Of a stretch of DNA of 64,000 nucleotides, positions 1 to 58,502 are shown in pieces. Below the pieces are notes generated by a model that made no database searches, was not told the origin of the DNA, and saw nothing but the letters and a program-made list of their open reading frames with translations. Position 1 is the first letter of the stretch, and every line of letters starts with the position of its first letter. The position numbers and the translations under genes are program-made. The DNA is from Methanococcoides vulcani (lineage in GTDB: Archaea; Halobacteriota; Methanosarcinia; Methanosarcinales; Methanosarcinaceae), in NCBI RefSeq assembly GCF_900111645.1, contig NZ_FOHQ01000002.1:1-64000 (forward strand). The letters run 5' to 3'.

Positions 1-12
1 CGCAATGTAAAG

Positions 13-22
13 GCTTATATGG
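13..22 (+). promoter_or_regulatory. TATA-like box ahead of tRNA-Cys
   Basis: A TTATAT core (15-20) lies about 35-40 nt upstream of the tRNA-Cys 5' end, so transcription would start around position 41-45. This suggests that tRNA-Cys and the following 5S rRNA have their own promoter. The window edge prevents seeing whether a 23S gene ends just upstream. Confidence 0.4.
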
Positions 23-54
23 TTGTGTTGCCTAGTAAAGTCCGCTTAAAAAGT

Positions 55-125
55 GCCAAGGTGGCGGAGCGGCTACGCAATCGCCTGCAGAGCGATTCCA
101 TTCCGGTTCGAATCCGGACCTTGGC
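55..125 (+). tRNA. tRNA-Cys (anticodon GCA)
   Basis: The 7-bp acceptor stem GCCAAGG (55-61) pairs with CCTTGGC (119-125). The anticodon stem ATCGC/GCGAT encloses the loop CTGCAGA, with anticodon GCA at 87-89. The T arm is TCCGG-TTCGAAT-CCGGA. The CCA end is not encoded. No intron is seen. It lies just upstream of 5S rRNA and shares its orientation, so the two are probably co-transcribed. Confidence 0.95.
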
Positions 126-148
126 TTTCATCCATTAATATGAGTTAG

Positions 149-273
149 AGTACGGCGGCCATAGCGGCAGGGCAACTCCTGTTCCCATTCCGAACACAGA
201 AGATAAGCCTGCCCACGTTGCTTACTGTACTGAGGTACGAGAGTCCTCGGGAAATCTGCGTCGCTGCTGTGCT
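149..273 (+). rRNA. rrf: 5S ribosomal RNA
   Basis: The sequence carries the archaeal 5S core, with GGGCAACTCCTGTTCCCATT followed by CCGAACACAGAAGATAAGCC. The ends form helix I: AGTACGGCGG (149-158) pairs with CCGCT-like bases near 262-273 with a few G-U pairs. The exact ends may differ by a few bases. A T-rich tract at 285-295 is a plausible archaeal termination site. No 23S or 16S gene is visible in the window. Confidence 0.93.
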
Positions 274-387
274 CACTCTATTACCCTTTTTCTTTAACTG
301 ATCTTAACTCACTAGCTTTGACTTTGCTGTTCTGATATGTTTTTATTCATGATCACTTTTACAGATTCGAATTGCTAAATGTACAAA

Positions 388-55836: not shown

Positions 55837-56053
55837 GTTCCTCTATTATTCTTTAGTTTGCATTGTATTTAGATGTATCAATAATGTTACTGTTGCCGGA
55901 TGGAATTCGGGGCGGGTTCGACCTTTGCCTCGGATGAGCTTTAACTTTCAGCCGAGAAGTCCCTTCTGTAAGGTGGGGGATGAAAGGCGTACTATCCGCA
56001 TACACCATTATTTTACAAAACATTGATATATTGTTAAAACATATAGTATATTG

Positions 56054-57172
56054 ATGCTTAAAGCCTACAAATATCGACTGTACCCCTCTGAATCCCAAAT
56101 CGAGATTCTTGTAAAACATATTGGTGCATGTAGGTTTACGTATAATTGGGCTTTAGAACAGAAAAACAAAGCGTATGAAGTTGATAAAAAATACTTGTCG
56201 AGATTTGAATTACAGCATCGACTTGTTCATGACCTGAAACCAAACAATGAATGGTTAAAAGAAGTCAATTCCCAATCATTACTAAATACACTTATCAATC
56301 TCGAATCTGCTTTCACTCGCTTTTTCAGAGAGAAAAAAGGATTTCCTAATTTCAAATCAAGGAAAAATCCCGTACAATCATTTCAGATACCACAACATTA
56401 TTCAGTGGATTTTGAAACTGATACAATCAAACTTCCTAAGTTGAAACAACCGATAAAGGCAAAGTTGCATCGGAAGTTTGAAGGTAAACTAAAAACCGCT
56501 ACGGTATCAATAACCCCTACTGGAAAATACTACATCAGTATTCTAGTAGATGATGGAAAAGAATTGCCTGAAAAAGAAATGTTCGATGAAAAATCAACAT
56601 TGGGAATCGATGTTGGACTTACTCACTTCGCCATACTTTCCAATGGTGAAAAAATCGACAATCCCAAACACCTTAGAAATAGTATGGATAGGATGAAAAT
56701 CTTACAAAAGCGGACGAGTAAGAAACAAAAGGGTTCAAAGAACCGAAATAAAGCTAGACTTGCAGTATCTACACTTCATGAAAAAATCCGAAACCAGAGA
56801 ACTGATTTTCTGCACAAAACTTCTTATAAATTAATAAGCGAGAACCAAGCAATTGCAGTAGAAACACTGAATATTTCGGGCATGTTAAAAAACCATTGTC
56901 TTGCACAAGCAATCGGTGATGTTTCATGGAGTGTGTTTTTTCGACAACTCGAATATAAAGCAGAGCAGTACGGAAAGACACTATTAAAGATAGGTCAATT
57001 TGAGCCATCTTCGAAATTATGTAATGTTTGTGGTTTCCACAATGGTAAAATGACTTTGAAAGATAGATATTGGAGTTGTCCTGAGTGTAATACAGAACAT
57101 GACCGAGATATCAATGCCGCTATCAATATCAAGAAGTTTGCACTTCAAAATCAAAATCTACTAAATATTTGA
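56054..57172 (+). CDS. tnpB: TnpB, RNA-guided endonuclease of IS605-family element
   Basis: About 372 residues, intact. The N-terminal helix-turn-helix-like domain starts LKAYKYRLYPSESQ. The RuvC catalytic residues, numbered from the ATG at 56051, are Asp187 (LGIDVGLTHFA), Glu271 (AVETLNISGM) and Asp353 (HDRDINAAINI). The zinc motif is CNVCG...CPEC. TnpB uses an omega RNA from the element's right end to cut DNA next to a target-adjacent motif. No stop or frameshift interrupts it, so it may be active. Confidence 0.92.
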   Translation: MLKAYKYRLYPSESQIEILVKHIGACRFTYNWALEQKNKAYEVDKKYLSRFELQHRLVHDLKPNNEWLKEVNSQSLLNTLINLESAFTRFFREKKGFPNFKSRKNPVQSFQIPQHYSVDFETDTIKLPKLKQPIKAKLHRKFEGKLKTATVSITPTGKYYISILVDDGKELPEKEMFDEKSTLGIDVGLTHFAILSNGEKIDNPKHLRNSMDRMKILQKRTSKKQKGSKNRNKARLAVSTLHEKIRNQRTDFLHKTSYKLISENQAIAVETLNISGMLKNHCLAQAIGDVSWSVFFRQLEYKAEQYGKTLLKIGQFEPSSKLCNVCGFHNGKMTLKDRYWSCPECNTEHDRDINAAINIKKFALQNQNLLNI

Positions 57173-57266
57173 CACCTTCGGAACGAGGGGAAGAGCCTGT
57201 GGACTTGTGAACATAAGTTCAAAGAATGAAGCAGGAAGCTCCATGCGTAAGCGTGGAGTAGTTCAC
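57130..57266 (+). ncRNA. Probable omega RNA (reRNA) of the TnpB element
   Basis: Known TnpB omega RNAs span the end of tnpB through the right end of the element, continuing into flanking DNA as guide. Here this segment contains CCTTCGGAACGAGGGGAAG and the right-end hairpin at 57239-57258. The guide would start at 57267 with TATGGTCTATCTTTGTGGGC. The 5' end is not defined by sequence alone. Confidence 0.5.
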
Positions 57267-57509
57267 TATGGTCTATCTTTGTGGGCCTTACAATCTCCTC
57301 TATCTTTTTTGTTAGAGCAACTAAAATACAAGGATAGGCTATTTCTATGTGTATGATATATAGCAAAAAAACACTGATAAGTGGAATTGCAGATCAATTT
57401 GGGAAACATTGAGATTCCAAAAGCAAAGTTCACACAATTTCACATAAATGATGCTAATAAAGAAACTCAGGGTTTTCATGGACTCTCAGCAACTAACGGA
57501 TGAAGAAAA
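57267..57509 (+). promoter_or_regulatory. asd upstream region
   Basis: 243 bp between the TnpB right end and asd. A TATA-like GATATATAGC (57354-57363) predicts a transcript start near 57385 and a leader of about 125 nt. The leader contains a short upstream frame MDSQQLTDEEK (57478-57513), whose TGA overlaps the asd ATG. No other gene or repeat is seen. Confidence 0.4.
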
Positions 57510-58502
57510 ATGAGTTACAAGATAGGAATTATGGGCGCTACTGGTGCAGTGGGCAGGGAAATCATCGAAGTTCTTCATGACAGGAACTTTCCTGTGGAAA
57601 GTCTAAGACTTTATGCATCAGAGAGAAGTGCAGGTAAGACGATCGAGACACCTTTTGGTGAGATCACTATTGAAAACGCCGGCTCGGCAGATTATTCGCA
57701 GCTTGACATCGCATTTTTTGCGATCAGCGGAGGCTGGAGCAAGGAGAATGCCCAAAAGGCAACAGATGCAGGCTGCTATGTGATCGACAACAGCAGTGCT
57801 TTCAGATATGATGATGAAGTGCCACTGGTGGTTCCTGAGATCAATGCCAATGCTATCGGGGACTCAAAGCTGATCGCCAATCCGAATTGTACAACTGCTA
57901 TTGCAGCCATTCCTCTGTATAACCTCCACAAGGAATATGTTCTGAAGAAGGTCATAATCAGTACCTACCAGGCTACCAGCGGTGCCGGAGCTGCCGGAAT
58001 GAGCGAACTGATAGAGGAAACCAGGAATTACCTGGAAGGCAAGGAGGCCCGGAACAAGGTATTTGTTCATCCTATCGTTTTCAACACTATTCCACACATT
58101 GACAGTTTTCAGGAAAACGATTACACCCGTGAAGAGATGAAGGTTGTCTGGGAAACCAGAAAGATATTCAGTGAACCTGACATGGCTATCAGCTGCACCT
58201 GTGTAAGGATCCCAACGATGAGGGTTCATGGGGAAAGCATAGTGATCGAGACCGAAAAACCGATCTCTCCGGAAGATGCAAAGAAGCTATTAGGCGAAAC
58301 AGAGGGAATCGAACTAAAAGATGATATTGAGAACAACGTTTACCCGATGCCACTGACTGCCACCAAAAAATATGACGTGGAAGTTGGCAGGATAAGACAG
58401 AACCTTGTTTTCGGTGACCACGGTCTTGAGTTCTTTGTATGTGGTGACCAGATACTCAAGGGCGCTGCTTTGAATGCTGTTCAGATCGCTGAAAAACTTT
58501 AA
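57510..58502 (+). CDS. asd: Aspartate-semialdehyde dehydrogenase
   Basis: Makes aspartate semialdehyde for Lys, Met and Thr synthesis. 330 residues. NADP-binding GATGAVGREI is at the N-terminus; the catalytic Cys is in IANPNCTTAIAAIPL; the substrate-binding Arg is in CTCVRIPTMRVHGES. The C-terminal LEFFVCGDQILKGAALNAVQIAE is the family close. It lies downstream of the TnpB insertion and has its own promoter. No aspartokinase is adjacent. Confidence 0.96.
   Translation: MSYKIGIMGATGAVGREIIEVLHDRNFPVESLRLYASERSAGKTIETPFGEITIENAGSADYSQLDIAFFAISGGWSKENAQKATDAGCYVIDNSSAFRYDDEVPLVVPEINANAIGDSKLIANPNCTTAIAAIPLYNLHKEYVLKKVIISTYQATSGAGAAGMSELIEETRNYLEGKEARNKVFVHPIVFNTIPHIDSFQENDYTREEMKVVWETRKIFSEPDMAISCTCVRIPTMRVHGESIVIETEKPISPEDAKKLLGETEGIELKDDIENNVYPMPLTATKKYDVEVGRIRQNLVFGDHGLEFFVCGDQILKGAALNAVQIAEKL

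What the first reader, a model, noticed from the sequence alone, without database searches (positions are those of the whole stretch)
55885..57286. Solitary, apparently intact TnpB with its guide RNA end
Catalytic Asp, Glu and Asp and the zinc motif are all intact and the right-end hairpin is preserved, while tnpA is absent. The guide predicted from flanking bases 57267-57286 is specific to this locus, so the protein could cut the empty site and preserve the element. It may also have been adopted for another role.
Basis: partly seen in the sequence, partly recalled or inferred. Interest (0 to 1): 0.5.

Follow-up and report, generated by a model that had tools for sequence, protein, structure and literature searches.

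The report
Ordinary archaeal TnpB, probably merged copies
This is an ordinary, probably working RNA-guided DNA-cutting gene of a small mobile element in a methane-making archaeon; what looks like one solitary copy is very likely two copies, about 36,000 bases apart in the real chromosome, merged when the genome was assembled.

Summary
The gene is real: a 372-residue TnpB (56054-57172) with intact RuvC residues and zinc site, followed by an omega-RNA scaffold (57173-57266) whose four helices covary across 43 relatives. Copies and empty sites in relatives set the left edge: TTTAA at 55940-55944, element 55945-57266 (not from 55885). The assembly has no Y1 TnpA. It is a tnpB-only (IS1341-type) IS200/IS605 element of Methanococcoides, common in the family.

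"Solitary" is wrong. The assembly holds two more intact copies, a truncated one and, at both ends of contig C15 (36.3 kb), further halves of the element. C15 is the segment lying between the flanking genes yjeF and asd in 5 of 5 relatives compared; it carries single-copy Mmp3, and each end stops 95 bases inside sequence identical to the window. The window copy is best read as two direct copies collapsed by assembly (less likely, truly recombined).

Cutting of the empty site to retain the element fits the anatomy but is untested; nothing points to another role. Low interest, with a useful assembly caution.

The parts
55940..55944 (+). TTTAA, the target-adjacent motif / insertion site on the left
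   Evidence: copies diverge upstream of it; empty sites of a sister copy end in TTTAA before the guide; 13 of 14 copies at 75% identity or more have it, 11 by script and 2 by eye
55945..57266 (+). the whole tnpB-only element as assembled (left half probably from the yjeF-side copy, right half from the asd-side copy)
   Evidence: edges from copies and empty sites; chimeric origin from C15
55945..56053 (+). left end and leader of tnpB; conserved between copies; a left hairpin is suggested by eye, but its computed DNA fold is not better than shuffles
   Evidence: z -1.0
56054..57172 (+). tnpB, 372 aa; catalytic codons at 56609 (D186), 56861 (E270), 57107 (D352)
57173..57266 (+). omega-RNA scaffold / right end: helices 57175-57180 with 57184-57189, 57196-57200 with 57231-57235, 57204-57212 with 57217-57224, 57239-57246 with 57251-57258; possible pseudoknot 57181-57183 with 57262-57264
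   Evidence: positions follow from row 1 of the alignment
57267..57286 (+). guide-specifying right flank, of the asd-side copy
56010..57075 (+). stretch taken to be shared by the two merged copies: 95 bases at each of its ends are identical on contig C15, the 876 bases between are absent from C15
54391..55836 (-). yjeF / nnr-type gene (left neighbour); followed by the C15 segment in relatives
57510..58502 (+). asd, semialdehyde dehydrogenase gene (right neighbour); preceded by the C15 segment in five relatives

Best explanation
An ordinary tnpB-only (IS1341-type) IS200/IS605 element of Methanococcoides. TnpB probably binds an omega RNA made from the element's right end, whose last 16-20 bases are host flank, and cuts DNA that carries TTTAA next to that flank, that is, the site left empty when the element is excised; repair from an intact sister then restores the element. 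Excision and insertion need a Y1 TnpA, which this assembly lacks, so the copies are probably parked and mobile only if one is supplied in trans. Two such elements lie in direct orientation, one beside yjeF and one upstream of asd, around a 36-kb segment with methanogenesis genes; the assembly merged them, so the window shows one chimeric copy and joins two genes that are not neighbours. Shown: gene, residues, covarying RNA scaffold, motif, empty sites, synteny, contig ends. Inferred: RNA production, cutting, retention, mobilisation in trans, and collapse rather than real recombination.
For: Family and residues; 27-pair scaffold, 98.9% of 1153 cells paired, 219 cells changed on both sides against 62 shuffled; TTTAA and clean empty sites; other copies with other guides; low dN/dS 0.11-0.15 against six 88-92% copies; no Y1 TnpA. 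Merge: C15 covers the yjeF-asd interval of 5 of 5 relatives compared; flank joining restores their uninterrupted sequence at the yjeF side; both C15 ends stop 95 bases inside sequence identical to the window; Mmp3 only on C15, single-copy in 11 of 11 genomes.
Against: No reads, so collapse is not proven and real recombination would leave the same contig graph. The asd-side insertion has no clean empty site in relatives: 60-70 bases there are absent from them. Other contig ends of this assembly overlap by other lengths than 95. The left-end hairpin is not better than shuffles. dN/dS describes the lineage's history, not this copy since it inserted. No expression or cutting data.
Confidence: 0.8

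Rival explanations
1. The window junction is real: homologous recombination between the two direct element copies released the 36-kb segment as a circle, and the sequenced culture held this form, wholly or in part.
For: Direct orientation and near identity of the two copies; the contig runs straight through from yjeF to asd without N.
Against: The segment carries Mmp3, component A2, FEN-1 and others, with Mmp3 nowhere else in the genome, and no replication initiator was recognised among the 26 C15 proteins scanned; a free circle would be lost.
Confidence: 0.13
2. A decaying remnant: tnpB is no longer expressed or used, and its intactness merely reflects recent arrival.
For: No Y1 TnpA in the assembly; 5 of 56 relatives examined have internal stops and one copy in this genome is 5'-truncated.
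Against: This frame is uninterrupted with all seven key residues and a complete scaffold; two paralogues in the same genome are intact too.
Confidence: 0.12
3. A domesticated TnpB with a host role (regulation or defence).
For: Intact nuclease without its transposase, next to housekeeping genes.
Against: The insertion lies at different sites in different species and is absent from the corresponding places of relatives; multicopy with different guides; the active site is intact, unlike nuclease-dead regulators; its guide has no second match in the genome at up to 3 mismatches.
Confidence: 0.03

Closest known systems
ISDra2 TnpB of Deinococcus radiodurans (8bf8, 8exa, 8h1j)
   Same: Full-length sequence match (residues 3-365, E 5e-67), same RuvC and zinc residues, right-end guide RNA with corresponding stems and possible pseudoknot
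   Different: Motif TTTAA instead of TTGAT; shorter scaffold; no tnpA in the element
SisTnpB1 and solo TnpB elements of Sulfolobus islandicus (PMC10640517, part 1 of 2 read)
   Same: Archaeal; TTTAA (TTTAT in solo elements) before the left end; two hairpins at the right end; solo tnpB elements occur
Copy upstream of asd in Methanococcoides alaskense (L027/L097)
   Same: 91% identical TnpB, same ends
   Different: Another TTTAA site close to asd and another guide: an independent insertion
RAGATH-18 RNA / IS607 TnpB (RF03064; PMC11061315, passages read)
   Same: Part of the scaffold resembles the family (24.1 bits)
   Different: Below the gathering score of 44.9; reported IS607 motifs are AGGAG or GAGGG; no serine recombinase beside it

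Membership tests
TnpB RNA-guided nuclease | RuvC Asp-Glu-Asp and four-cysteine zinc site | tested here: met
   (45 of 45 uninterrupted relatives, this one included)
TnpB RNA-guided nuclease | Structured right-end guide-RNA scaffold ending at the element's edge | tested here: met
   structure only, no transcript
TnpB RNA-guided nuclease | Motif adjacent to the guide-matching target in the empty site | tested here: met
   for a sister copy (4 relatives); for the yjeF-side copy, where relatives read CTTTTA and not CTTTAA
TnpB RNA-guided nuclease | RNA-guided cutting of double-stranded DNA | not testable with these tools
   needs biochemistry
IS200/IS605, IS1341-type (tnpB only; group name recalled) | Insertion 3' of a fixed short motif without target duplication | tested here: met
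IS200/IS605, IS1341-type (tnpB only; group name recalled) | Hairpins near both ends | tested here: inconclusive
   right end z -3.7, left end z -1.0
IS200/IS605, IS1341-type (tnpB only; group name recalled) | tnpB present, tnpA absent from the element | tested here: met
IS607 / RAGATH-18 TnpB | RAGATH-18 RNA over the gathering score, serine-recombinase TnpA alongside | tested here: not met
   24.1 against 44.9 bits; the only PF00239 matches are on contig C10, which has no TnpB match
TldR (nuclease-dead TnpB regulator) | Lost RuvC catalytic residues (recalled) | tested here: not met
   all three intact

The most novel reading that the evidence does not exclude
The two direct TnpB elements really recombine in living cells, so that a 36-kb methanogenesis segment is reversibly excised as a circle, with the TnpB nuclease and its two guides promoting the exchange by cutting at the elements' empty sites.
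Probability: 0.05. Interest if true: 0.6.

Novelty: new member of a known kind. Interest (0 to 1): 0.22.

Why it matters
As biology it adds one well-delimited tnpB-only family in Methanococcoides, with motif, ends and a covarying guide-RNA scaffold read from sequence, which could serve as a non-thermophilic archaeal TnpB to test. As practice it shows that a 'solitary' TnpB in a draft genome can be two merged copies, so that the predicted guide and the left motif belong to different insertions; guides should be read only after checking synteny.

Tried and rejected
Considered and dropped: a single ancestral insertion shared with M. alaskense upstream of asd (right flanks and distance to asd differ). 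IS607 membership. A pairing of the 3'-terminal GTTCAC with GTGAAC, suggested by this sequence alone: in relatives that segment forms the third helix with compensatory changes. Carriage by viruses: the viral-contig scan found no relative. The assembler-constant idea for the 95-base overlaps: other contig ends overlap by other lengths. A first regular-expression pass for left ends failed on several rows; the second mislabels L029 and L030, which read TTTAAC by eye; L042 has lost its left end. No fold prediction was run, as a solved relative matches by sequence over almost the full length.

Rows dropped: of 56 loci given to, 13 had no recognisable or a too short right end, leaving 43; for residue counts 45 of the 56 were used (5 had internal stops; the other 6 did not start at residue 1, were out of frame or short). 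These loci are a choice from those returned, not all matches listed there. One search kept only aligned pieces over 150 bases. Empty-site alignments were made for 5 of 10 genus relatives at the yjeF side.

Full report
What is there. At 56054-57172 (+) is a 372-residue TnpB with the Pfam domains PF12323, PF01385 and PF07282 over their cut-offs and a match over residues 3-365 to ISDra2 TnpB (8bf8, E 5e-67). RuvC residues D186, E270, D352 and zinc cysteines 323, 326, 342, 345 are intact, as in all 45 uninterrupted sequences aligned.

Edges and motif. Copies diverge just before TTTAAC on the left and just after GTTCAC on the right. In M. alaskense a 91%-identical copy sits upstream of asd; in four relatives (G002, G007, G008, G009) the same place reads GGTTTTTTAA-GAATTGGGATTC without the element, and the filled site has TTTAA on the left and GAATTGGGATTC on the right. 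So the element inserts 3' of TTTAA without target duplication, and TTTAA plus the right flank is exactly the target its guide would find. Here this puts the motif at 55940-55944, the element at 55945-57266 and the guide from 57267. Of the 14 copies at 75% identity or more (the C15 left end included), 13 have TTTAA (11 by script; L029 and L030 by eye) and L042 has lost its left end. The script's own count over all 52 rows is 20 TTTAA, 18 TTTAT, 2 TTTAG, 1 TTTAC and 11 not found. The same two motifs are reported for Sulfolobus islandicus, where TTTAA supports cutting (PMC10640517, part 1 of 2 read).

Guide RNA. Forty-three distinct right ends (of 56 loci examined) were aligned. A four-helix structure of 27 pairs holds in 98.9% of 1153 cells, with 20 pairs changed on both sides at least once and 219 such cells (shuffled mean 62; slid controls at most 49). 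The alignment was not fitted to the structure, but I drew the structure from it by eye. In order, the helices resemble the stems of the ISDra2 omega RNA, and GAA (57181-57183) can pair with UUC (57262-57264), where the published pseudoknot lies (PMC10097598, passages read); these bases hardly vary, so one search gives no covariation either way. Rfam's RAGATH-18 resembles part of the scaffold but stays far below its gathering score.

Not solitary. The assembly has two other full-length uninterrupted copies (C5:577677, 81%; C8:160674, 79%), a 5'-truncated copy with a complete scaffold (C8:153226-153768), and fragments at both ends of contig C15 (97-98% of DNA). No Y1 TnpA is found; 3 of 11 genus genomes have one. 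In the family, 59 of 100 genomes searched hold relatives at E up to 1e-60.

The window copy is probably two copies. In G004, G010, G006, G003 and G005, yjeF and asd lie 31-36 kb apart in the same orientation. C15 (36,297 bases) aligns collinearly with that interval in 5 of 5, over about 30.5 kb at 83-92%, apart from a 5.2-kb stretch only C15 has. In four of the other five relatives (G001, G002, G007, G008) yjeF and the segment's Mmp3 lie about 20 kb apart on one contig, but asd is elsewhere; in G009 they are on different contigs. Read in the element's direction, C15 begins with a right half and ends with a left half of the element. Joining the window's left flank to the C15 sequence behind its right half gives one continuous match to the uninterrupted sequence of the five relatives. 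So one insertion lies between yjeF and the segment, with guide TTCCTGTACATTATCTCACC on C15 (unique at up to 3 mismatches), and a second between the segment and asd, with the window's guide (unique). Each C15 end runs exactly 95 bases into sequence identical to the window, and the 876 bases between are missing from C15: what an assembler leaves at a repeat. The second site has no clean empty counterpart; 60-70 bases there are absent from relatives.

Collapse or real excision. C15 carries Mmp3, Mmp7, Mmp15, component A2, FEN-1 and phosphoglycerate mutase. Mmp3 is single-copy in 11 of 11 genomes and here only on C15. No replication initiator was recognised among the 26 C15 proteins scanned. That these genes are needed for growth is my inference from their families. 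A free circle would be lost, so two integrated copies merged in assembly is the better reading; without reads it is not proven, and 95 is not shown to be a constant of this assembly.

Function. Inferred from the ISDra2 model (PMC8612924, passages read): the RNA-guided nuclease cuts the donor joint and so restores the element by repair. Pairwise dN/dS of 0.11-0.15 against six 88-92% copies shows that the lineage has been kept functional. No transcript, cutting or retention was tested. Without a TnpA the copies are probably immobile at present.

Novelty. Solo TnpB elements and their guide RNAs in archaea are known (PMC10640517; PMC12558985, abstract read). One search asked for at least three of Methanococcoides, transposase, IS605 and TnpB; of 101 papers found, none of the 12 listed holds the genus name; I make no wider claim. 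New member of a known kind.

Noticed in passing
L033 (G005:C1:10366-11475) and L038 (G010:C1:506799-507884): Two species carry TnpB elements at the same site (same left TTTTAT and right AAGTAAAGACTCCCAA flanks), yet the proteins are only 61.5% identical and the RNA scaffolds differ strongly: repeated insertion at one site, or replacement of one element by another.
   Followed up: partly
L010 (G000:C8:153228-153866): A 5'-truncated tnpB keeps a complete guide-RNA scaffold and its own guide, so it might supply an orphan guide to the intact TnpBs of the same genome.
   Followed up: no
G000:C15:26361-31621 (L073:6361-11621): A 5.2-kb stretch absent from five relatives holds a MarR-type regulator, an ORF without Pfam match, and Peripla_BP_2, FecCD and ABC-ATPase genes of a metal or haem uptake type.
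   Followed up: partly
L027/L064 (G001:C6) and window 55940-57509: Elements of the same family inserted independently upstream of asd in two species, at different TTTAA sites.
   Followed up: yes
window 1-356: The window's contig begins with a repeat shared exactly with the start of contig C13 over 356 bases, and from base 54 with the starts of C7 and C10.
   Followed up: no
G000:C2 (1368 bases) and G000:C4 (10,120 bases): C2 reads the same inward from both ends over the 400 bases compared (palindromic contig, perhaps an artefact); the ends of C4 overlap by 44 bases, so it may be circular.
   Followed up: no
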